From assembly GCF_000970305.1 (NCBI RefSeq), contig NZ_CP009517.1, forward strand, positions 62,001 to 126,000: a stretch of DNA of 64,000 bases, given 5' to 3'. Shown one piece after another: positions 1,674-63,542 of the stretch. The DNA is from Methanosarcina barkeri 3. GTDB lineage: Archaea; Halobacteriota; Methanosarcinia; Methanosarcinales; Methanosarcinaceae. The translations under genes and the position numbers were made by a program. Below the pieces are notes generated by a model that ran no database searches, was not told the origin of the DNA, and saw only the letters and a program-made list of their open reading frames with translations. Numbering within the stretch: the first letter of the stretch is position 1; each line of letters opens with the position of its first letter.

Positions 1674-2729
1674 TCACAATAAATACCGTCTTGAGCTTAA
1701 AACTGTCCTGAGAATCTCTTCACCGCCTGTTTTTTCGACCCTGATGTCAGACGGCTTTTCGATTACCTCAAGGTTAAGGGGCAAACGCTTCCGGATTTCC
1801 CCAATTAACTGAAAATCCCCGCTCAGAATAACGCAGTCAATAAACTTATTTTCTTCAAGAATCTTATCCAGGGCCTCGAGGACTTTATCCATGTGGTGCG
1901 CGATATCCTCTTCCCTCAGGCGTTCGAAGCGGCGCTGGCTAAAGCCTCCCTTACTGTGTTTTTCCTTCACGCTGCTGCGGATAATCTCCTCGGTATCGAA
2001 AACCTGCGCATCTGGAGCAAAACCTATGAATGACTCCCCTGCATGCAGGATAAGGACAAGCATGCTGTAGTCCCTGCTTAAACTCTCTTCAAGCAAAGAG
2101 ACCTCAAAACTGTCCCCAAGCTGCCAGGCTGGAGAAGTAATCGGAAAAGGAGGGGCTATAGCTTCGCAGACCATACGGTGAAGATCATAAAAAAGTACAA
2201 GGCCGGTCTCAGGTTCAAGCCTGTCAAGAAGGATAAGGGTTTCTTCTTCCACACGCTCAAGAACCTTTTCACTTATTACATCTGAGAGCCGGGTACCCGA
2301 GGGCAGGTAAGCGGTCAACAAGCCACCTGCAGGGGCGTGGAAGGACTTGAGTTTGGAGAGGTAAACCTGAATAGCCTGCAGGCTCAGATTTTCAGTTCCG
2401 CGAAGTTTCAATTTACCCTGAGATTCAGCCTGAATTGTTTCGAGCTCGTGGGAAAGAGTTCGGGTTCGAACACGTTCCTGGTTTAAAAGAGCCTCAACTT
2501 CCTGCCTGTCCGAAACTGCCTGCTTTGCGAGGATTTCTTTCTTTTCAAGCTGGTTTTTTGCATTCTGCAGGTCAAGTTCCAGTTTAACTACCTGCGAGTT
2601 GAGCCTGTTGATTTCAAGTTCGAGTTGCTCTTTTCCTGAAATCTTCCCTAGAAATGTGCTTAATCCTCTTGTAGTAACTCCAGTGGCTTCTTTTTTTGTT
2701 TTTCTGTCGCTGATTTGTCTTCCTCCCAC
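1674..2729 (-). CDS. Archaeal Vms1-like release factor (VLRF1 family)
   Basis: A 351-residue protein. Residues about 30-105 form a charged coiled coil. The rest is an eRF1-like fold with the motif KGGFSQRRFERLRE at about residues 260-273; Gln265 occupies the place of the catalytic glutamine of Vms1/VLRF1 proteins. Family members release nascent chains from tRNA on stalled or split ribosomes, so a ribosome quality-control role is inferred. The GTG start at 2729 is uncertain: a GGGAGGA lies just inside the ORF with no standard start codon after it. The gene is divergent from coaBC. Confidence 0.75.
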   Translation of the reverse strand: MGGRQISDRKTKKEATGVTTRGLSTFLGKISGKEQLELEINRLNSQVVKLELDLQNAKNQLEKKEILAKQAVSDRQEVEALLNQERVRTRTLSHELETIQAESQGKLKLRGTENLSLQAIQVYLSKLKSFHAPAGGLLTAYLPSGTRLSDVISEKVLERVEEETLILLDRLEPETGLVLFYDLHRMVCEAIAPPFPITSPAWQLGDSFEVSLLEESLSRDYSMLVLILHAGESFIGFAPDAQVFDTEEIIRSSVKEKHSKGGFSQRRFERLREEDIAHHMDKVLEALDKILEENKFIDCVILSGDFQLIGEIRKRLPLNLEVIEKPSDIRVEKTGGEEILRTVLSSRRYLL

Positions 2730-3037
2730 TCTGTTAGTTTTGACTTAGATACCGAATTAATAAAATAAAACTTTCGATAAAGTTTCCTTCTCAATTTCAT
2801 CCTTATTATTTCGAAAGTTTTAATAATATCGTATTGAATGTCACTTTGCTTTCAGGAGCATTTTCTGAAAAGCAAGCTGATTTAAGAGATTATTGTCCAG
2901 CTTATACCTTATAGATCACTCCGCTGCCTGAATGAGAATCCCATTGAGAACCCAATTGAAAGATTTTTAAACCCAGACAGGCAGAAGGACCCTAATCAGG
3001 AAAGCCCCGGTCAAAGGGACCGGATTGAGTAGATGAA
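2730..3037. promoter_or_regulatory. Divergent promoter region, VLRF1 / coaBC
   Basis: This 308-bp spacer separates two divergent genes and must hold both promoters. An A+T-rich box (agatttttaaac, about 2960-2971) lies some 70 bp before the coaBC ATG and is a plausible TATA element. A tataaa-poor but AT-rich tract at 2755-2835 would serve the VLRF1 side. No perfect operator was seen. Confidence 0.4.
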
Positions 3038-4297
3038 ATGGATAACGAAGAAAAGCAAAAGGCCCTCAGGTCCAGAGCCGAAAAGTTCCATCCCACACTT
3101 TGGATCCAGGGGCAAAAGAGCTCTTCCCTTGCCGGAAAAACCATAGTTCTTGGTGTTACGGGAAGTATTGGAGCAGTCAGGGTAGTTGAGCTTGCCAGAG
3201 AGCTGATAAGAAACGGGGCTGAAGTCCATGCTGTTATGACAGAGGCTGCTACACATATCCTGCACCCTGATGCCCTGCACTATGCTACGGGAAATCCAAC
3301 AATCACCGAACTTGGAGGCAGGGTTGAGCATGTGGAGTTCTGCGGGCTTAAGGGCAGAGCCGACCTTCTCCTTATAGCCCCTGCAACCGCAAACACCATA
3401 GGAAAAATCGCATACGGAATAGATGACACTCCTGTTACCTCGTTTACAACAACTGCCCTTGGCTCTGGTGTGCCTGTGATGATTGTTCCTGCAATGCATG
3501 AATCAATGTTCAGGCACCCTGCTGTATCTGAAAATCTGGTAAAATTGAAAAGCTGGGGAGTCTCTATTGTGGGCCCCAGGCTTGAAGAAGGCGTCGCAAA
3601 AATTGCGGCAAATGAAGAAATCGTGCTCGAGGTAGAAAGAGCTCTCGGAAGTAAAAACCTTGAAAACCGAAAGATAATTATTACGAGCGGTTCTACTGCC
3701 GAAAGTCTGGACCCCATCAGAATTCTCACGAACCGAGCCTCAGGCAAAACCGGTAGGGAACTTGCCCTTGAAGCTTACCGCAATGGATCTAATGTAACCC
3801 TGGTTCATAGGGACCGACTTGGGTTTGCAGGGATCGGTGAGATCTTTGCAGAGAGCGCCGCCGAAATGACCGATGCCGTGCTCTCGGAACTTGAGAAAGG
3901 GTACGATGTCCTTATCAGTTCGGCAGCAATTGCAGACTATACAGCCGAGCCTTCTCCCGAAAAGATAAAATCGGGAGGAGAACTCACCTTGAGACTGAAA
4001 CCCACCCGCAAATTGATTAAAGAATGCCGTCAAAGGTATCCCGACCTCGTGATTATAGGTTTCAAGGCTGAAACCGGAATTGAAAAAAACGAACTCCTCA
4101 GAAGGGCAGCTTCAACCCTTAAAACGTCAAAACTGGACCTGATTGCAGCAAATGACGTTGCTAGAGGTGGAATGGGCACTGAGGAGAATGAACTATACCT
4201 GCTTAAACGGGAAAAAAGTGAACCAAGGCACGTAAGCGGGAACAAACGCAAACTTGCAGCCTGTATCCTTGAAGAGGTAGCCAGTCTGTTAAAGTAA
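3038..4297 (+). CDS. coaBC: Bifunctional phosphopantothenoylcysteine decarboxylase / phosphopantothenate-cysteine ligase
   Basis: 419 residues with the CoaC flavoprotein half first and the CoaB ligase half second. CoaC signs are VTGSIGAVRVVELARELI (binding loop), APATANTIGKIAYGI, and PAMHESMF in place of the usual PAMNxxM. CoaB signs are ITSGSTAESLDPIRILTNRA, SSAAIADY, GFKAET and AANDVARGGMGTEENE. It joins cysteine to 4'-phosphopantothenate and decarboxylates the product to 4'-phosphopantetheine in the cytoplasm. It opens a run of CoA genes with pantoate kinase and phosphopantothenate synthetase downstream. Confidence 0.95.
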   Translation: MDNEEKQKALRSRAEKFHPTLWIQGQKSSSLAGKTIVLGVTGSIGAVRVVELARELIRNGAEVHAVMTEAATHILHPDALHYATGNPTITELGGRVEHVEFCGLKGRADLLLIAPATANTIGKIAYGIDDTPVTSFTTTALGSGVPVMIVPAMHESMFRHPAVSENLVKLKSWGVSIVGPRLEEGVAKIAANEEIVLEVERALGSKNLENRKIIITSGSTAESLDPIRILTNRASGKTGRELALEAYRNGSNVTLVHRDRLGFAGIGEIFAESAAEMTDAVLSELEKGYDVLISSAAIADYTAEPSPEKIKSGGELTLRLKPTRKLIKECRQRYPDLVIIGFKAETGIEKNELLRRAASTLKTSKLDLIAANDVARGGMGTEENELYLLKREKSEPRHVSGNKRKLAACILEEVASLLK

Positions 4298-52774: not shown

Positions 52775-54994
52775 ATGAGTCCTAAAAATATTAAAGATCA
52801 GGATTCCATACCCTATCAGGCACTAGTAGATGAAAACCGTGCTTTAAAAGATGAGATACAGAGCCTGAAAGCACGCTTAGAGAAAGCTGAAGAACTTGAG
52901 TGCACTATAGAAAAAGTGAATATGAAATGCAAGTTGAGTGAGACTTTTCGCAAGTCGCTTAACTCCATAAATCTGACAATTCATTCAATCCTTGACTTCG
53001 ACGAGATGATGAAAGAAATTGTTTCGGAAGCAGCAAAAGCAATTGGAAGTGAAACTGCCGCTATTTCTCTTAGAAAGGGTTACCATTGGGTCCTCAGTTA
53101 TTCATATGGTTTTCCGGAGAATATAATCGGATCGGTAATGAATGACAAGGAAGAAACTCACGCTGTACTTGCAATAAAAACTAAAAAACCGGTCGCTATA
53201 AACGATGCCTTTAACGATGAACGAGTAAATCGCATTCACATGAGAAAATGGAACGTTCGTTCCGTACTGGTTGTACCTCTTATAACCAGAGATGAAGTTA
53301 TCGGTGTGATTTTTTTTAACTTTCACAAATCTACTTTTGCATTTAGTAACGTCCATATTAGTTTTGGGACGCAACTTGCTTCATTGGTATCGTTAGCCCT
53401 GGAAAACTCCCGCCTTATAGAGAATCTAAAAATAGAACTTACTAAACACAAAAAAGTAGAAGAAGCATTACTTAAGAGTGAGACAAGGTATCGTCAAATT
53501 GTGGAAACTTCGCAGGAAGGGATATGGCTAACTGATCACAGCAATCGAACCGTCTTTGTCAATCAGAAAGTATCTGAAATGCTGGGATATAGCATAGAGG
53601 AGATCCTTAAACAATCACCTCAAAAGTTCATATCTTCAGAGTTTAACGCAGGGTCAGACAATAAACTGCGTGAATATCTGCCTGAAGTTAACCACTTGAT
53701 CGACTACCGGTTTACCCGGAAGGATGGATCGGACCTGTGGTGCATTCTTTCCTCCAGTCCGTTACTCGATGACCAGGGAAAATATGCTGGGTCACTGACC
53801 ATGATTATGGACATTACCGACCGCAAGCGAGCAGAAGAAGCCCTTAAAAAAGCCTGCAATAGCTTAGAAGGAAAAATTAAAAAACGCACAGAAGAGCTGG
53901 AAATTGCTTACAATTCATTAAAAGAAAGCGAGAGAAGTCTTGCAGAAGCTCAAGAGATTGCTCATATTGGAAATTGGTGCCGCAATATTGAAACCGAGGA
54001 AGTACGCTGGTCTGATGAGGTTTATCGTATTTTTGGGTTTGAGCCTCAAGAATTCGGAGTCGACTACAATGTATTTTTGAGCTGTGTACATCCGGATGAA
54101 CGTGAATATCTAATTGAAGCAGTCAAACAAGCTTTAAATGAAAAGTTCTTTGACGCCGAATATAGAATAATCCGACCTAATGGAGTAGAGCGTATCCTTC
54201 ATGAAGATATCAAAGTTATTTGTAATAATGAGAATGTTCCGATTCGACTGAGCGGAACAGTTCAGGACATTACTGAACGTAAAAAAGCAGAAGAAGCTCT
54301 AATAAAACTCGAAAAAACCCGGATAAAGGAAATTCATCATAGAATCAAAAACAACTTACAGGTAATCTCTTCCCTGCTGGACCTCCAGGCTGAGACGTTC
54401 AAGGATGAAACGGTTAGACAAGCTTTCAATGAAAGCCAGAATCGTGTATTCTCAATGTCCCTTATCCATGAAGAACTTTACAAAGGAAGTGAAGCCTATA
54501 CACTGGACTTTTCTTCCTATCTCGAAAAGTTAGCTGAAAATCTGCTCAAAACTTACAGTACTAGCAGCAAAAATATACGCCTGAAAATGGATCTGGAAGA
54601 AAATACATTTCTTGATATGGATACTGCCGTCCCACTGGGTATAATCGTTAATGAACTCATTTCTAACTCCCTAAAGCATGCATTTACTGAAAAGAGAGAA
54701 GGGGAAATTCAAGTCCGTTTTTGCAGGAATGAAGAAGAAAAATGTGACGAAATGCATAGTTTAATGTTCAGTCTGACAATTTCGGATAACGGAAAAGGAA
54801 TTCCTGAAGATCTGGATTTAGAAAATATAGAATCACTTGGCCTGCAGTTAGTAAGCACTCTTGTTGACCAGTTAGACGGAGAATTTCAACTGAAAAGGGA
54901 CAATGGTACTAATTTCAAATTGAGTTTCTCAGTAAAAGAAAAAGAAAATCAGGCATATCAACAGCCCTACATCAATTCGTTGAATATAGAGTAA
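52775..54994 (+). CDS. Cytosolic sensor histidine kinase (GAF-PAS-PAS-HisKA_2)
   Basis: 739 residues with no membrane helix. A coiled coil (about 15-50) leads to a GAF domain (about 65-215), PAS 1 (about 230-355), a coiled linker, PAS 2 (about 385-505), a HisKA_2 dimerisation helix with His521/His522 in EIHHRIKNNLQVISSLLDLQ, and an HATPase with VNELISNSLKHAF and ISDNGKGIPEDL. It senses an unknown cytoplasmic signal. No response regulator is nearby. Methanosarcina has many such orphan kinases. Confidence 0.92.
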   Translation: MSPKNIKDQDSIPYQALVDENRALKDEIQSLKARLEKAEELECTIEKVNMKCKLSETFRKSLNSINLTIHSILDFDEMMKEIVSEAAKAIGSETAAISLRKGYHWVLSYSYGFPENIIGSVMNDKEETHAVLAIKTKKPVAINDAFNDERVNRIHMRKWNVRSVLVVPLITRDEVIGVIFFNFHKSTFAFSNVHISFGTQLASLVSLALENSRLIENLKIELTKHKKVEEALLKSETRYRQIVETSQEGIWLTDHSNRTVFVNQKVSEMLGYSIEEILKQSPQKFISSEFNAGSDNKLREYLPEVNHLIDYRFTRKDGSDLWCILSSSPLLDDQGKYAGSLTMIMDITDRKRAEEALKKACNSLEGKIKKRTEELEIAYNSLKESERSLAEAQEIAHIGNWCRNIETEEVRWSDEVYRIFGFEPQEFGVDYNVFLSCVHPDEREYLIEAVKQALNEKFFDAEYRIIRPNGVERILHEDIKVICNNENVPIRLSGTVQDITERKKAEEALIKLEKTRIKEIHHRIKNNLQVISSLLDLQAETFKDETVRQAFNESQNRVFSMSLIHEELYKGSEAYTLDFSSYLEKLAENLLKTYSTSSKNIRLKMDLEENTFLDMDTAVPLGIIVNELISNSLKHAFTEKREGEIQVRFCRNEEEKCDEMHSLMFSLTISDNGKGIPEDLDLENIESLGLQLVSTLVDQLDGEFQLKRDNGTNFKLSFSVKEKENQAYQQPYINSLNIE

Positions 54995-55351: not shown

Positions 55352-55849
55352 ATGAGTTCCAAAGGTACTATTGTTCAAGAGTCCATACCCTATCAGGCAT
55401 TAGCAGATGAAAATCGAGCCTTAAAAGACGAGATAGAAAGTCTGAGAGTACGCTTAAAGGATGCTGAAGAAAGGGAAAGAAGTCTTACTGAAGCTCAAGA
55501 AATTTCTCACATTGGAAACTGGTGCCGCAATATTGAAACCGGGGAAGTACACTGGTCTGATGAGGTTTATCGTATTTTTGGATTTGAACCTCAGGAATTT
55601 GGCGTCACCTATGATAAGTTCTTGAGCCGTGTACATCCGGATGAACGTGAATATTTAATTGAAGCAGTCAAACAAGCTTTGAATCAAAAGTTCTTTGACG
55701 CTGAATATAGAATAATCCGACCTGATGGAGAAGAGCGTATAATGCACGAGGATATCAGGGTTATCTGTAATAATGAGAATGTTCCGATTCGACTGAGCGG
55801 AACAGTTCAGGACATTACTGAACGTAAAAAGACTAAAGCTTTGATATGA
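55352..55849 (+). CDS. Stand-alone PAS protein, partial duplicate of the upstream kinase
   Basis: 165 residues. The first ~45 residues match the kinase N-terminus (SIPYQALADENRALKDEI), then the protein jumps to the second PAS domain, nearly identical (HIGNWCRNIET and VRVHPDEREYLIEAVKQ-type stretches, ending IRLSGTVQDITERKK). The GAF and first PAS are missing and the transmitter is absent: it stops right where HisKA_2 would begin. Either a decayed copy or a sensor-only partner or decoy. Confidence 0.8.
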   Translation: MSSKGTIVQESIPYQALADENRALKDEIESLRVRLKDAEERERSLTEAQEISHIGNWCRNIETGEVHWSDEVYRIFGFEPQEFGVTYDKFLSRVHPDEREYLIEAVKQALNQKFFDAEYRIIRPDGEERIMHEDIRVICNNENVPIRLSGTVQDITERKKTKALI

Positions 55850-56559: not shown

Positions 56560-56728
56560 TTAATTCACATTTAAAAATTTTGATGCTTACTGATTTCTCA
56601 AGAAAGTCCCTGGAAAAAGGTAAATAATGTGAACAGATAAATAAAATAAAAACAAGATTGAGATTAGGGGGAAGGGTAGAATCGAGATTTCAGAGCTTAG
56701 AAAAAAAGAGAAAATATACCTCCTGCTT

Positions 56729-57067
56729 GTGAGTATCTTTCTCGCAGCTATCCTCTTTTATACCTTTTATATCAGCCAGCTTCTTTGGGGAATAGTTATT
56801 GATGTTCTTATTCTGAGGCTTTATTTCCTCATGAAAAGGGAGAAGAGTTACTTCAGAGAATGTTACCTGGATGAAAAAGAAGCAGGAACTACGCTAGATC
56901 CCCAAATAAAAAAGAAAGTCCGGCTTGCAAACATTCTTATTACTCTCTTCGTGCTTGGACTGGTTGTTTATTCATACTTTACTTTCCAGTTCCTCTCAGG
57001 GGTTGTTGCAGGCTTGCTGATTTTGCTTTATGTACACATGCTGCTGTTTTCGAAGGACAATCTTTGA
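56729..57067 (+). CDS. Small membrane protein made of two LonB-like transmembrane hairpins
   Basis: 112 residues from a GTG at 56729; the frame stays open about 25 codons further without a standard start, and GGGGGAAGGG lies in that extension, so the true start is unclear. Four hydrophobic segments form two similar hairpins. The second (NILITLFVLGLVVYSYF then GVVAGLLILLY) closely resembles the membrane insert of LonB at 58796 (NMLMMLFVVGIIIYSYF, GIIAGIMILML). The first (LLWGIVIDVLIL) resembles its second helix. Function unknown; interaction with LonB is conjecture. Confidence 0.6.
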   Translation: MSIFLAAILFYTFYISQLLWGIVIDVLILRLYFLMKREKSYFRECYLDEKEAGTTLDPQIKKKVRLANILITLFVLGLVVYSYFTFQFLSGVVAGLLILLYVHMLLFSKDNL

Positions 57068-57210: not shown

Positions 57211-58071
57211 TCATTTTTCCTGTTCTTCCGGAATTTCTTGCTTTTCCAGGTTTTCCTGATTCTCAGGTTTTTCCAGGCTTTCAGGATTTTCCTGTTTTTT
57301 CAGGGTTTCAAGTTTTTCAAGCCTTTTCCGGGTTAAAGCAATAGCATCTTTAATAGCTGTATTTTCGGACTGCTGGGCAAAGATGTTTTCCTGCATGGCA
57401 AGAGCTTTTTCAAGGTTCTGTTTTGCAGTATCGCTTTTTTCCGGGTCCTGCTGGATTTGGCAGTTTCCAAGCTGGCTGAGCGCAACTGCAAGTTCGGCCT
57501 GATAGCCAGGGTTGTCGGGCTTTTCTTCAAGAAGTTTTTCGTAGAGTTCAATTGCCTGGTTGAGGATTTCGCATGCTTCTTCAAAATAACCCATATCCGT
57601 AAGGAGAGCTGCATAATTGTTCAGGTTCTCGCCGGCAGCAGACCGAAAAACTGCATTTTCAGGCTCTTTTGCCAGGAGATTTACATAGGTCTCACGGGCG
57701 CGGATATAATATTCGGCAGCTTGCGGCTTTTCACCTTTATTTTTTAGAAGGTTTCCGGTATTGCTCAGGGTTGTGCCCATGTAGTGACGGTAATTAGTAT
57801 TTTCAGGATCGTTTTTAAGGAGTTCTGAACCTGCATTAATCGCCATTTCGTAGGTTTCGAGGGCTTCGTTATATTTTGACTCAGTATAATAGATGCCTCC
57901 ACGCATAAAAAGAACATAATATACTGCGTCAGTGGCTTTTGCTTTCTTTGCCGAGTCTTCGGCTTTATCAAGAGTTTCAAGAGCTTTATCAAGATTACCT
58001 TTTCGGATTTGGGCTACGGCACTGTGAATTTGCTTCAGAAGGAGAAGATTTCTGACCTTGCTTCTGGACAT
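57211..58071 (-). CDS. TPR-repeat protein with acidic low-complexity tail
   Basis: 286 residues with about five tetratricopeptide repeats (ALETLDKAEDSAKKAKATDA, YTESKYNEALETYEMAINAG, LTDMGYFEEACEILNQAIEL). The last ~30 residues are a Glu/Pro/Gln/Lys-rich tail (ESLEKPENQENLEKQEIPEE). The start follows cttatgtcc with a weak aagagg site. It converges on the LonB-hairpin gene. It is not closely like the two TPR paralogues at 17352 and 20723. Confidence 0.85.
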   Translation of the reverse strand: MSRSKVRNLLLLKQIHSAVAQIRKGNLDKALETLDKAEDSAKKAKATDAVYYVLFMRGGIYYTESKYNEALETYEMAINAGSELLKNDPENTNYRHYMGTTLSNTGNLLKNKGEKPQAAEYYIRARETYVNLLAKEPENAVFRSAAGENLNNYAALLTDMGYFEEACEILNQAIELYEKLLEEKPDNPGYQAELAVALSQLGNCQIQQDPEKSDTAKQNLEKALAMQENIFAQQSENTAIKDAIALTRKRLEKLETLKKQENPESLEKPENQENLEKQEIPEEQEK

Positions 58072-58750: not shown

Positions 58751-58795
58751 GATCAGTAACGTCTATTGAATAACGTTCAAATATGTGAGCTAACC

Positions 58796-60892
58796 ATGGT
58801 GTATAATAAAAATCAGAACATAGACGAGTCTTCAGAAAATATGGATGAGCTCGCTCAAAATATCGGCGAGCCCGTCCAGAATGTAGACACGTCTACGGCC
58901 GATCAGAAGACGGAGGAGTCCGGTGGGGGTATGACCGGGCCAGAATCCAATCAAGTTAAGGCCGAGTCTGAGTCCGATCAGGATGATTATGAAGATGTTG
59001 ACATCGGCTTTTCTTTTGAAAATACTTCTAATATAGATGTACCCAAACTTCTTATCGACCAGGTACTGGGTCAGGAACATGCCGTAGAAGTCGTAAAAAA
59101 AGCGGCTGGCCAGAGACGGCATATTATGATGATAGGAACCCCAGGAACAGGGAAATCCCTGCTTGCAAAAGCAATGGCAGAGCTTCTTCCTAAAGAAGAA
59201 CTTAAGGATATCCTTGTATATCCTAACATGGAAGATCTTAACAACCCTAAAATAAGGGAGGTTCCCGCTGGAAAGGGCAGAGAAATCGTCATGGCCCATA
59301 AAATGGAGGCTAGAAAGAAAGTCCAGGCCAGAAATATGCTCATGATGCTTTTTGTTGTGGGTATTATCATCTATTCTTACTTTGTTTACGAATTGATATG
59401 GGGCATTATTGCAGGCATTATGATTCTCATGCTAACCCGCCAGTTCTTGCCTAAAGAAGAAATGATGATCCCCAAATTGGCGGTTTCAAATTATGACAAA
59501 GAGCACGCACCTTATATCGATGCAACCGGAGCTCACGCAGGAGCTTTGCTTGGTGATGTAAGGCACGACCCATTCCAGTCCGGTGGGCTTGAAACCCCTG
59601 CTCACGACAGAGTAGAGGCCGGAGATATCCACAAGGCCCATAAAGGTGTGCTTTTTATTGACGAAATCAACACTCTCAGGCTGGAATCCCAACAGAGTCT
59701 TCTGACTGCGCTTCAGGAAAAAGAATACCCGATTACCGGGCAGTCCGAAAGAAGTTCGGGCGCTCTTGTCAAGACCGAGCCTGTACCATGTGACTTTATT
59801 ATGGTATCTGCAGGAAACCTTGATGCTGTACAGAAAATGCATCCTGCGCTCAGGTCAAGAATAAAAGGTTACGGTTACGAAGTCTACATGCAGGATTCCA
59901 TGGAAGACACTCCTGAAAACCGGAAGAAAATGGTTCGTTTCGTTGCTCAGGAAGTCGTTAGGGACGGACATATTCCTCACTTCAATGAAGGTGCAGTGGA
60001 AGAAGTAATAAGGGAAGCCAGAAGACGGGCAGGTAGGAAAGGGCACCTTACCCTGAAGCTCCGTGATCTTGGCGGACTTGTACGCGTAGCAGGAGACATT
60101 GCCCATTCCGAGGGCGCTCCATTAACAACTGCAGAGCACGTGCTTGCAGCAAAGAGAATCGCAAGGTCGATTGAGCAGCAGCTTGCAGATAGCTATCTGG
60201 AACACCGCAAAGAATACGAATCTTTCCTCAGAAAAGGTTCTGCGGTGGGCAGGGTTAACGGGCTTGCAGTCATGGGTGGAGATTCCGGAATTGTGCTTCC
60301 CATCGTGTCTGAAGTCACACCTGCAATTTCAGGAGCTGAAGGGCGAATTGTAGCAACAGGAAAACTCAAGACTATTGCAAAGGAAGCAGTGCAAAACGTC
60401 TCTGCTGTAATTAAAAACATGACCGGTACGGATATATCCAGACACGACGTCCATATCCAGTTTGTAGGAACTTACGAAGGTGTGGAAGGAGACAGTGCAT
60501 CGGTTTCCATTGCAACAGCTGTTATATCGGCCATCGAAAAGATTCCAGTCGACCAGACTGTAGCTATGACAGGTTCCCTTTCAGTCAGGGGAGATGTCCT
60601 GCCTGTAGGCGGAGTTACATATAAGATTGAAGCTGCAGCTCAGGCCGGCATGAAGAAAGTCATTATCCCGAAATCAAACGAGGCAGATGTTCTCATCGAA
60701 AAGGCGTATAAGGAAAAAATCCAGATCATCCCTGTCTCCTCTATTGCGGAGGTAATGGAACACAGCCTTGTAGGTCCGAAAAAGAACTCAATTATCGAAA
60801 AACTTCGAAACATTACAAGGCTCAACTTCGATATTCCTGAGGTTTCACCCGCTTCCGTACAGGCTAAGAATCTTTTTGGATGCAGGAACTGA
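58796..60892 (+). CDS. lonB: Archaeal membrane-bound Lon protease
   Basis: 698 residues from the ATG at 58796 (a TTG ten codons earlier also exists). After an acidic N-terminal region of about 70 residues (rich in D/E/N/Q/S) comes the AAA+ module: Walker A GTPGTGKS from Gly114, a two-helix membrane insert at about 180-212, and Walker B VLFIDEIN near 285. The C-terminal protease has the dyad Ser567 (GDSASVS) and Lys610 (TYKIEAA). It degrades misfolded proteins at the inner membrane face. tldD follows with a TGATG overlap. Confidence 0.96.
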   Translation: MVYNKNQNIDESSENMDELAQNIGEPVQNVDTSTADQKTEESGGGMTGPESNQVKAESESDQDDYEDVDIGFSFENTSNIDVPKLLIDQVLGQEHAVEVVKKAAGQRRHIMMIGTPGTGKSLLAKAMAELLPKEELKDILVYPNMEDLNNPKIREVPAGKGREIVMAHKMEARKKVQARNMLMMLFVVGIIIYSYFVYELIWGIIAGIMILMLTRQFLPKEEMMIPKLAVSNYDKEHAPYIDATGAHAGALLGDVRHDPFQSGGLETPAHDRVEAGDIHKAHKGVLFIDEINTLRLESQQSLLTALQEKEYPITGQSERSSGALVKTEPVPCDFIMVSAGNLDAVQKMHPALRSRIKGYGYEVYMQDSMEDTPENRKKMVRFVAQEVVRDGHIPHFNEGAVEEVIREARRRAGRKGHLTLKLRDLGGLVRVAGDIAHSEGAPLTTAEHVLAAKRIARSIEQQLADSYLEHRKEYESFLRKGSAVGRVNGLAVMGGDSGIVLPIVSEVTPAISGAEGRIVATGKLKTIAKEAVQNVSAVIKNMTGTDISRHDVHIQFVGTYEGVEGDSASVSIATAVISAIEKIPVDQTVAMTGSLSVRGDVLPVGGVTYKIEAAAQAGMKKVIIPKSNEADVLIEKAYKEKIQIIPVSSIAEVMEHSLVGPKKNSIIEKLRNITRLNFDIPEVSPASVQAKNLFGCRN

Positions 60893-62229
60893 TGACCATT
60901 ATGCAGGATATTAAATTTTATGACTGCAGGGTAATTGAGGGCAGTTCCACCTCAATTATTCTGGATAACGGAAAGATCGAAGAAATATCCAGAAACTTTA
61001 CACGGGGGGCCGGAGTAAGGGCTCTTTCTGGAGGTTCCTGGGGTTATACATCTGTGGAAGGGGAAATTGACCTCAAACAGGGTGTCGAGGCGGCCTCAAA
61101 ACTTGCTTTTTCTATGAATGCCAGTACCCCTAAGGAAGACGTGGAACTTGCAGCCTTGAATCCTCCGGAAGTAAAGAATCTCCCAGAGGTCAGAATTGAC
61201 CCAAGGGATGTTTCTATTGAGGAAAAAGTTGATCTTTTAAAAAACATAGAAACCAATGCGAAAGTAAAGGGCATTAACAGTACCAAAGTTATGTACCTGG
61301 AATCTGAGTTTAAAGTCGAATACAGGAGTTCCGATGGTATTGAATGTGCCTATGAGCTTATGAATGTCGGTTTTGCGGTTTCGGCAGTTGCTTCGGAAAA
61401 CGGAGTATATCAGGCAGGCAGAGAAAGTCGGTTTGGGTACGGATATGAGCTTTTCAAGAAAGAAAACGTGCTGGAACTCGCCAGAAAGGCAGGAAATACT
61501 GCAATAGAGCTTCTCAAAGCGAAAACTCCTAAAGGCGGAGAAATGCCTGTAATTCTTGACCAGGAACTGGCTGGTGTCTTTGCCCACGAAGCCGTTGGAC
61601 ACGCATCTGAAGCTGATCTTGTTCTTGAAGGGGACTCCATCCTTGAAAACCGGATTGGAGAACAGATTGCCTCTCCTCTCATTACAATCATCGATGACCC
61701 TACCCTGCACGAGTTCGGATACTATCCTTTTGATGCCGAAGGGGCAAAATCAAAAAGAACAGAAATAATCAAGAACGGGGTTTTTAATTCCTATCTTCAT
61801 TCCCGGGAAACTGCAGCGAAACTTGGGGGAACTCCAGGGAACTGCAGGGCTCAGGGTTACTCAATGCCCGTTGTAAGGATGAGCAACACCTTCATAGATA
61901 ACGGGGATGCCAGATTTGAAGAAATGCTTGAAGAGATAAAAGATGGGATGTATCTTATAGGCTCAAGAGGAGGACAGGTAAATACCGGAGAAGGAATTTT
62001 CCAGTTCAATGCCGAAAAAGGATACCTGATAAAGAACGGAGAACTCACCGAACTTGTACGGGACGTTTCTCTCTCAGGCAAAACTCTTGAGATTCTCAAC
62101 CATGTGGCCCTTGTGGGCAACGACCTTAAAATGACTGCAGGCAGATGCGGAAAAGCCGGACAGCTTGTACCCGTATCAGATGGTTCTCCTCACCTGTCTA
62201 TCTCAAAAGCCCTGGTGGGAGGTGCCTGA
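60892..62229 (+). CDS. tldD: TldD metalloprotease family protein
   Basis: 445 residues from the ATG at 60892, which overlaps the lonB stop (TGATG) and has AGGA upstream; ATGs at 60880 and 60901 are alternatives. The zinc site is HEAVGHASEAD. Other marks are GRESRFGYG, SYLHSRETAAKLGG and RMSNTFIDNG. TldD forms a complex with TldE that degrades unfolded peptides and, in bacteria, processes microcins. Tight linkage to lonB suggests a joint protein-turnover operon. Confidence 0.93.
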   Translation: MTIMQDIKFYDCRVIEGSSTSIILDNGKIEEISRNFTRGAGVRALSGGSWGYTSVEGEIDLKQGVEAASKLAFSMNASTPKEDVELAALNPPEVKNLPEVRIDPRDVSIEEKVDLLKNIETNAKVKGINSTKVMYLESEFKVEYRSSDGIECAYELMNVGFAVSAVASENGVYQAGRESRFGYGYELFKKENVLELARKAGNTAIELLKAKTPKGGEMPVILDQELAGVFAHEAVGHASEADLVLEGDSILENRIGEQIASPLITIIDDPTLHEFGYYPFDAEGAKSKRTEIIKNGVFNSYLHSRETAAKLGGTPGNCRAQGYSMPVVRMSNTFIDNGDARFEEMLEEIKDGMYLIGSRGGQVNTGEGIFQFNAEKGYLIKNGELTELVRDVSLSGKTLEILNHVALVGNDLKMTAGRCGKAGQLVPVSDGSPHLSISKALVGGA

Positions 62230-62231
62230 AG

Positions 62232-63542
62232 ATGTACGAGCTTGCAAGAAAAGCTCTAAGGCTTGCAGAAAAGGCAGGAGCTGAAGAAGCTGAAATCTAT
62301 TATGCTGCAAACCACTCAACAAGTGTGAATTTTAGAAAAGATGCACTTGAGAATGCTAAAGACCGTTTCTCGGAAGGTATAGGAGTCAGGGCTATAGTAA
62401 ACGGAGCTGTGGGCTTTGCCAGCACGAATTCGGCAGCACAAATAGAGGATGCTGTTGAGGTTGCGGTTTCCGAAGCCAGGATAAGGGAAAGTGATCCTGA
62501 TTGGGTGGGTCTTCCTTCGAACGAAAAATATCCCACGGTATCGGGCATCTTCGATAAAAAAGTCGAGACCCTGGAACTTGAAGCCTGTATTGAGCATGCC
62601 CTGGCACTTATTGAAGGCACAAAAGAAGTCCCAGGTACACTTCCAACATCAGGAGGCTTTACTCGGGCAAAGAGCAAGCAACTTATCCTGAACACAAATG
62701 GCATAGAAATAGAAGAGGAATCAACAGCAGTTTCCGGTTTTGTTGATGTCATTACTGTAAACGGGCAGACTTCAACAGCCTATGACTTTGGAATTTCCCG
62801 TTCTCTGGATATTGATTTCTTCGCCCTTGGAAAGAATGCAGCCGAGCTTGCACTGAAATCCAGTGACGGAATAAAGATCGAACCGCAAAAAACTGATGTG
62901 GTTTTCCATCCGTTTGCTTTTTCAGACATTATTGAGGAGGCGCTTGCTCCTTCGTTTGATGCGGACAATGTCCAGAAGGGAAGGTCGGGCCTGATAGACA
63001 AACTCGGCGAGGAACTTGCAGTGCCGGAACTCAGCATCTATGATGACGGACTCATTGAGGCAGGAATCGAGACATCTACTTCGGATGATGAGGGAGTTCC
63101 TTCGCAGCGTACTACCTTGATTGGAAAAGGCGTACTTGAAACTTACCTCTATGACAGTTATACCGCAGGAAAATCAGGCGTCAAGAGTACCGGAAACAGC
63201 TCAAGGTCTTCTTATACAAGTCCTCCTGCAGTAGGGCTCAGAAACGTTATAGTTGATTATCCTCAGACGGATGTTATTGCTGATACTCATTCCGGGATCT
63301 TCGTAAACACGATAATCGGTGCTCACACGGCAAACTCGATTTCTGGAGACTTCTCAGTAGAAGCCAGAAATGCCTTCACAATTAAAGACGGAGCACTTGA
63401 TAAGCCTATAAAATCCCTCATGATTTCAGGCAATGCTTTCGAGATTTTAAAACAGATCACAGGAGCAGGCTTTGATGTCAGGAAAGTCGGAGGAATAATT
63501 ACACCTTCTATCCGGGTTTCGGATATGAGTGTTATAGGTTAA
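62232..63542 (+). CDS. tldE: TldE/PmbA family protein
   Basis: 436 residues from the ATG at 62232, chosen because GGAGGTG lies 8 bp upstream and the tldD stop is 2 bp away; a longer open frame exists but would overlap tldD. It has YYAANHSTSVNFRKDALENA, GVRAIVNGAVGFASTNS and the C-terminal SISGDFSVEARNAF. It lacks the HExxxH zinc motif, as expected for the non-catalytic partner. The pair acts as a heterodimeric peptidase. Confidence 0.92.
   Translation: MYELARKALRLAEKAGAEEAEIYYAANHSTSVNFRKDALENAKDRFSEGIGVRAIVNGAVGFASTNSAAQIEDAVEVAVSEARIRESDPDWVGLPSNEKYPTVSGIFDKKVETLELEACIEHALALIEGTKEVPGTLPTSGGFTRAKSKQLILNTNGIEIEEESTAVSGFVDVITVNGQTSTAYDFGISRSLDIDFFALGKNAAELALKSSDGIKIEPQKTDVVFHPFAFSDIIEEALAPSFDADNVQKGRSGLIDKLGEELAVPELSIYDDGLIEAGIETSTSDDEGVPSQRTTLIGKGVLETYLYDSYTAGKSGVKSTGNSSRSSYTSPPAVGLRNVIVDYPQTDVIADTHSGIFVNTIIGAHTANSISGDFSVEARNAFTIKDGALDKPIKSLMISGNAFEILKQITGAGFDVRKVGGIITPSIRVSDMSVIG

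What the first reader, a model, noticed from the sequence alone, without database searches (positions are those of the whole stretch)
56729..57067. Protein made of two LonB-type membrane hairpins
Its second hairpin shares about 16 of 38 positions with the membrane insert of the LonB encoded 2 kb away, including the YSYF and G--AG--IL motifs. The first hairpin also matches LLWGI. A membrane-only paralogue of the Lon anchor could regulate or recruit the protease.
Basis: partly seen in the sequence, partly recalled or inferred. Interest (0 to 1): 0.6.

Follow-up and report, generated by a model that had tools for sequence, protein, structure and literature searches.

The report
Double copy of LonB membrane anchor
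Next to the gene for a membrane-bound protein-shredding machine (LonB), Methanosarcina archaea keep a small gene that encodes two copies of that machine's membrane anchor and nothing else, which makes it a candidate, untested partner of the protease.

Summary
The small protein at 56729-57067 is two LonB-type membrane hairpins joined by a polar linker. A profile of LonB inserts alone scores its hairpins at 35.5 and 24.4 bits; none of 3 x 20,000 composition- or pattern-preserving shuffles exceeds 19.6. Conversely, a profile of this protein alone picks out LonB across the class. It is under purifying selection, was found only in Methanosarcina and two sister genera, and in 29 of 29 carriers lies beside a convergent TPR gene and lonB. 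The proposed role, regulating or recruiting LonB, is plausible but untested. Against it: one close relative has lost the gene, its turn residues do not co-vary with LonB, and LonB-type hairpins also occur in proteins not linked to lonB, so the hairpin alone does not prove LonB binding. An unexpected wider pattern emerged: separate small proteins in related families carry LonB-type hairpins whose 12-residue turn resembles the LonB of the same lineage. The gene also seems to lack a usual start codon for a conserved N-terminal stretch.

The parts
56729..57067 (+). Double-hairpin membrane protein (called HAIR here), ORF from the GTG
56681..56728 (+). In-frame extension (16 codons) conserved as protein; no ATG/GTG/TTG upstream in this frame
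   Evidence: pooled pN/pS 0.335 over 12 sequences
56717..56830 (+). Hairpin 1 (two hydrophobic segments, turn YTFYISQLLWGI)
   Evidence: 24.4 bits to the LonB-only profile
56831..56929 (+). Charged linker, inferred cytosolic
   Evidence: sequence; KKV--AN at its end aligns with KKV--RN before the LonB insert
56930..57046 (+). Hairpin 2 (turn YSYFTFQFLSGV)
   Evidence: 35.5 bits; hhalign E 8.8e-13 with the LonB alignment
57211..58071 (-). TPR-repeat protein, convergent with HAIR and divergent from lonB
   Evidence: TPR_12 E 7.6e-14; next to HAIR in 29 of 29 carriers
58766..60892 (+). lonB, membrane-anchored ATP-dependent protease
   Evidence: TIGR00764 946 bits, cut-off 516.6
59330..59449 (+). 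LonB membrane-anchoring insert (residues 189-228)
   Evidence: absent from the aligned part of PDB 3k1j
60880..62229 (+). tldD, overlaps the end of lonB
62208..63542 (+). pmbA (start uncertain)

Best explanation
HAIR is a small integral membrane protein built from two copies of the archaeal LonB membrane-anchoring hairpin, most likely derived from the lonB insert of its own lineage, duplicated, and kept beside lonB together with a TPR gene. Most likely mechanism (inferred): it inserts with both ends and the linker in the cytosol, its hairpins pack against LonB hairpins in the membrane, and it thereby tunes LonB (oligomer stability, access of membrane substrates, or docking of the TPR protein as a cytosolic adaptor). 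Shown: homology, conservation, neighbourhood, selection. Inferred: topology, packing with LonB, any effect on proteolysis.
For: Homology. The similarity extends into the non-hydrophobic KKV--(A/R)N flank. Neighbourhood: HAIR(+)-TPR(-)-lonB(+) in 29 of 29 carriers from 3 genera (24 of 30 Methanosarcina, one of them frameshifted; 4 of 4 g7; 1 of 2 g26). HAIR and TPR are both absent in G015 and G016 and at all 16 lonB loci fetched from other genera. Purifying selection: median dN/dS 0.13 over 220 pairs. Precedent: E. coli LapB uses its transmembrane helix to bind the membrane AAA+ protease FtsH, with YejM as anti-adaptor (PMC9356133, passages read); that LapB carries TPR motifs I saw only as a reference title there.
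Against: G027 (LonB 99% identical) has lost HAIR, replaced by about 5.8 kb of other DNA. HAIR is not expected to be co-transcribed with lonB. HAIR turns do not match the own LonB better than permuted LonBs: for H1 13,325 and for H2 20,000 of 20,000 permutations reach the observed value. LonB-type hairpins also occur in YIP1-domain, PLDc_N and uncharacterised proteins away from lonB. AlphaFold2 did not show the hairpin breaks (two long helices, pLDDT 73, pTM 0.47), with a shallow alignment.
Confidence: 0.42

Rival explanations
1. The LonB-type hairpin is a lineage-specific general membrane anchor, used by many proteins; HAIR uses it for an unrelated job and its place beside lonB reflects where the duplication happened.
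For: The hairpin occurs in YIP1 (35.0 bits to the LonB-only profile), PLDc_N (23.9) and hairpin-plus-beta-domain (26-29) proteins, found away from lonB. H1 is no closer to LonB (35.4%) than to the YIP1-type hairpin (38.3%). No turn co-variation.
Against: HAIR has no other domain that would need an anchor. It stays with lonB and the TPR gene in all 29 carriers, through divergence to about 52% identity. H2 is closest to LonB (39.9% against 19.5-30.5% for the others).
Confidence: 0.38
2. HAIR serves the TPR gene rather than LonB: a membrane dock for the TPR protein, with lonB only a neighbour.
For: HAIR always lies beside the TPR gene; both are absent together in G015 and G016 and at the lonB loci of other genera.
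Against: The TPR gene persists without HAIR in G027 (its end is lost with HAIR). It does not explain the LonB-type sequence.
Confidence: 0.12
3. Convergence: generic hydrophobic hairpins look alike.
For: Short, hydrophobic segments. In G001 the two hairpins score only 19.6 and 17.0 bits, close to the best apparently unrelated ORF of the 30 genomes (17.4 bits, 42 codons).
Against: 0 of 60,000 shuffles reach either hairpin of the window protein; reciprocal profile searches find each other genome-wide; the polar flank is shared.
Confidence: 0.03
4. A decaying duplicate without function.
For: Not found in G027, G015 and G016; frameshifted in G014.
Against: dN/dS 0.13 across 27 intact sequences.
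Confidence: 0.05

Closest known systems
Membrane-anchoring (MA) insert of archaeal LonB (TIGR00764, MEROPS S16.005)
   Same: Hairpin sequence, turn motif, preceding KKV--N flank
   Different: HAIR has two hairpins and no AAA+ or protease domain
LapB/YejM regulators of E. coli FtsH
   Same: Idea only: membrane proteins that act on a membrane AAA+ protease through transmembrane helices
   Different: No sequence relation tested; HAIR has no TPR domain of its own; function untested
Abi/CPBP gene beside haloarchaeal lonB (HVO_0784)
   Same: A membrane-protein gene next to lonB
   Different: A predicted protease with no known relation to HAIR; co-transcribed with lonB (PMC9263693, passage), which HAIR is not expected to be
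Double-hairpin proteins of family f2 (L110, L111, L112, L113, L114, L119)
   Same: Two LonB-type hairpins, small; about 4.4 kb downstream of lonB in G039 and G054
   Different: Longer linker, no neighbouring TPR gene seen, full-length similarity low (27% over 98 columns)

Membership tests
Archaeal LonB protease | AAA+ ATPase domain | tested here: not met
   No AAA+ family reported by Pfam for HAIR
Archaeal LonB protease | Lon protease domain with Ser-Lys dyad | tested here: not met
   112-128 aa; no such domain
Archaeal LonB protease | Membrane-anchoring hairpin | tested here: met
Regulatory partner of a membrane AAA+ protease (LapB/YejM-like role) | Binds the protease through transmembrane helices | not testable with these tools
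   Only single-chain structure prediction was available
Regulatory partner of a membrane AAA+ protease (LapB/YejM-like role) | Co-occurrence with the protease gene | tested here: met
   29 of 29 carriers; lonB itself is far more widespread
Regulatory partner of a membrane AAA+ protease (LapB/YejM-like role) | Contact residues co-vary with the protease | tested here: not met
   turn residues only, 14 genomes, 4 LonB turn types
PLDc_N or YIP1 families | Family profile match | tested here: not met
   Neither family reported for HAIR at E up to 1

The most novel reading that the evidence does not exclude
LonB is the hub of a lineage-specific set of small membrane proteins that carry matching copies of its anchor hairpin. 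They join or cap the LonB membrane ring, and the 12-residue turn is the recognition element: it changes in step in LonB and partner (for example LonB YSFYTGMLLWGI with partner YSFYTGMLLWGL in G116, LonB YSFYLGALLLGI with the orthologous partner YSFYIGALLLGL in G110, with 8 of 9 and 9 of 10 shared residues coded by different codons). HAIR would be the Methanosarcina member, though its own turns do not show the matching.
Probability: 0.2. Interest if true: 0.85.

Novelty: new variant of a known kind. Interest (0 to 1): 0.52.

Why it matters
The passages I read name no membrane partner for archaeal LonB, an essential protease in Haloferax volcanii (PMC9263693, passages). A conserved gene beside lonB that is made of two LonB anchors, in a genus with genetically tractable species (recalled), gives a direct test of whether the anchor hairpin is more than a passive tether.

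Tried and rejected
Structure: AlphaFold2 of HAIR (17 sequences) gave two long helices, pTM 0.47, no hairpin break; Foldseek found nothing at E <= 0.001 in the PDB; LonB (15 sequences) failed, mean pLDDT 36, with its insert also drawn as one helix, so these models neither support nor refute hairpins. No PDB chain matches the HAIR profile, and the aligned parts of 3k1j skip the LonB insert.

Turn co-variation HAIR-LonB: tested and negative. The first version mislabelled hairpin 1 of G106 as hairpin 2 and used only 6 HAIR loci, one without its own LonB; one search corrects this with 14 genomes. One search left out three g5 beta-domain proteins that the profile missed; one search includes them. 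Within Methanosarcina and its sister genera the beta-domain proteins do not match their own LonB beyond chance (4,327 of 20,000). G049 and G059 are one genus, and G110 and G116 are genomes with 6-7% contamination, so the f2 and f5 counts overstate independence.

An apparent tandem duplication of the lonB insert in G025 is an assembly join with NN. Weak Pfam hits to HAIR (DUF7103, Coa3_cc, RAMP, VirB3) are below their cut-offs.

Papers: six searches (listings only) showed no title or abstract on a LonB-anchor relative in Methanosarcina; no wider claim of absence is made.

Full report
What is there. The ORF at 56729-57067 (112 aa from a GTG) lies 1.7 kb upstream of lonB (58766-60892; TIGR00764, 946 bits), in a single-contig 4.56 Mb genome; named relatives of the locus are mostly Methanosarcina. 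Between them, on the opposite strand, is a TPR gene (57211-58071); lonB is followed by tldD and pmbA. I call the small protein HAIR. It has no Pfam or NCBIfam family above cut-off.

Is the resemblance real? BLASTP pairs both hairpins with the same LonB insert: 19/48 and 19/52 identities. In six-frame searches of 30 genus genomes the LonB insert is found in all 30 at E about 1e-9 to 2e-8 and is nearly the only match besides HAIR. A profile of 14 LonB inserts only (A1) gives LonB about 100 bits, HAIR hairpin 2 mostly 27-47 bits and hairpin 1 15-28 bits; the highest apparently unrelated ORF is 17.4 bits (42 codons, G005), and in G001 the hairpins (19.6, 17.0) are not clear of that. A profile of HAIR only (A3) finds a match in 201 of 237 class genomes; in the listed rows of genomes without HAIR the matched frame is nearly always a LonB-sized one (the listing was cut). 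Profile-profile comparison of 17 HAIR with 15 LonB sequences gives E 8.8e-13 over 52 columns, including a polar flank, KKV--AN against KKV--RN. Against the LonB-only profile the window protein scores 35.5 and 24.4 bits; the best of 20,000 segment shuffles, 20,000 hydrophobic-class-preserving shuffles and 20,000 ten-residue-block shuffles are 14.6, 19.2 and 19.6.

Distribution and neighbourhood. HAIR is present in 24 of 30 Methanosarcina genomes (in G014 broken by a frameshift), cut by a contig end in G018, in 4 of 4 genomes of g7 and 1 of 2 of g26, where the other contig ends about 0.3 kb upstream of lonB. G011 and G023 end 0.1-0.4 kb beyond the TPR gene and cannot be judged. G015 and G016 lack both HAIR and TPR. 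G027 keeps the TPR gene without its end but has about 5.8 kb of other DNA in place of HAIR. At the 16 lonB loci fetched from other genera neither HAIR nor TPR is found. In all 29 carriers the order is HAIR, TPR (opposite strand), lonB; in G029 a 553-aa frame lies between HAIR and TPR.

Selection and start. Over 27 intact sequences, median dN/dS is 0.13 (220 usable pairs, residues 17-128). Residues 1-16, upstream of the GTG, are also under constraint (pooled pN/pS 0.335 in 12 sequences), yet the frame of the window has no ATG, GTG or TTG there; relatives of another clade begin at an ATG further upstream, and the GTG position is GTG or ATG in the 12 sequences of the window's clade. The true start is unresolved.

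Origin. Over 40 ungapped columns, H2 is 39.9% identical to LonB inserts on average, H1 35.4%, H1 to H2 25.8%. H2 is nearest to LonB of Methanosarcina and its sister genera (45.4% against 34.2% for other genera of the family), H1 nearer to the other genera (38.7% against 33.9%). I infer derivation from a lonB insert before or around the split of these genera.

The hairpin is not private to LonB and HAIR. Hairpins of this type also occur in proteins of about 160-185 aa with a C-terminal domain unknown to Pfam (26-29 bits in three of four tested; the fourth, G053, 8.8 bits, is at background), in a YIP1-domain protein of G179 (35.0 bits; Yip1 E 2.2e-13) and in PLDc_N proteins (23.9 and 17.8 bits; a third, 12.2 bits, is at background). 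So the hairpin alone is not evidence of LonB binding; H1 in particular is not LonB-specific.

A second double-hairpin protein. Family f2 of the same order has a separate protein with two such hairpins in five genomes (G039 with two copies, G054, G083, G059, G049). In G039 and G054 one copy lies about 4.4 kb downstream of lonB; in the 9 kb read around the G083 gene and the 4.5 kb around the G059 gene no lonB was seen. Its profile matches 104 of 148 genomes, nearly always through a LonB-sized frame. A third family (92 and 130 aa, G116 and G110, 61% identical) finds, in 30 of 36 genomes matched, only itself and LonB-sized frames.

Lineage matching of the turn. G059 and G049: LonB YAFFSGMLIWGI, partners YGFFSGMLIWSI or YGLFSGMLIWSI, and YSFFSGMLIWGI. 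G054: LonB YSLYTGTLIWGI, partner YSFYTGTLIWGI twice. G116: YSFYTGMLLWGI and YSFYTGMLLWGL. G110: YSFYLGALLLGI and YSFYIGALLLGL. In G116 and G110, 8 of 9 and 9 of 10 shared residues with a codon choice use different codons, so this is likeness of protein, not copied DNA; in G054 the 36 nt are 33-35 of 36 identical between LonB and both partner hairpins while flanks are 33-38 of 84, which looks like local gene conversion. Random LonB types of the same family reach the observed likeness in 211 of 20,000 draws for f2 (13 hairpins, 6 genomes), 302 of 20,000 for f5 (2 hairpins, 2 genomes) and 0 of 20,000 for f1 proteins other than HAIR (25 hairpins, 17 genomes). These counts ignore relatedness; the f2 flanks also match (113 of 20,000); G083 and G044 do not match well. 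HAIR itself shows no matching, which weighs against the most novel reading for this very gene.

How it may work. In LonB both sides of the insert belong to the AAA+ module, so the insert must leave and re-enter the cytosolic face (inference). HAIR then has its ends and linker in the cytosol and four membrane crossings. Packing of these helices with LonB hairpins is the simplest use of a copied anchor, and E. coli LapB shows that a transmembrane helix can recruit a membrane AAA+ protease (PMC9356133, passages). All of this is inferred; I put it at 0.42, with a general-anchor reading close behind at 0.38.

Known work. Archaeal LonB is described as anchored through a transmembrane segment in the AAA+ module and essential in Haloferax (PMC9263693, passages); PMC9569914 (passages) calls the insert the MA domain. 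LonB was recovered from M. mazei in a Con A eluate (PMC4350412, one passage). PMC2605481 (passages) surveys Lon families; a word search of PMC5898192 found nothing on Lon.

Noticed in passing
56645-56728: Conserved in-frame codons upstream of the GTG without a usual start codon; possible non-canonical start or a recently moved start.
   Followed up: partly
L078:4077-4598 (-), L089:4300-4830 (+), L053:3334-3930 (-): Uncharacterised 160-200 aa proteins with an N-terminal LonB-type hairpin and a conserved C-terminal domain not in Pfam.
   Followed up: partly
L083:74-844 (-): YIP1-domain protein with an N-terminal hairpin that scores 35.0 bits against the LonB-insert profile.
   Followed up: partly
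L084:10443-10733 (+) and copies: Several PLDc_N-type small membrane proteins per genome in genus g5 with the GQLLWGI turn.
   Followed up: partly
L111:8365-8850 (-) and 2098-4029 (+): 36 nt of lonB nearly identical to two places in the double-hairpin gene, with unrelated flanks; looks like short gene conversion.
   Followed up: partly
L130:604-879, L131:474-863: Single-hairpin proteins whose turn differs between two genomes at the same three positions as LonB (T, M, W).
   Followed up: partly
58766-63542: lonB-tldD-pmbA order is kept at most lonB loci fetched from other genera, which suggests a shared proteolysis unit.
   Followed up: no
52775-54994 and 55352-55849: A PAS/GAF histidine kinase followed by a short PAS protein 79% identical to one of its PAS stretches: a truncated duplicate.
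   Followed up: no
L042, L046: Additional TPR genes lie in tandem upstream of HAIR in some species.
   Followed up: no
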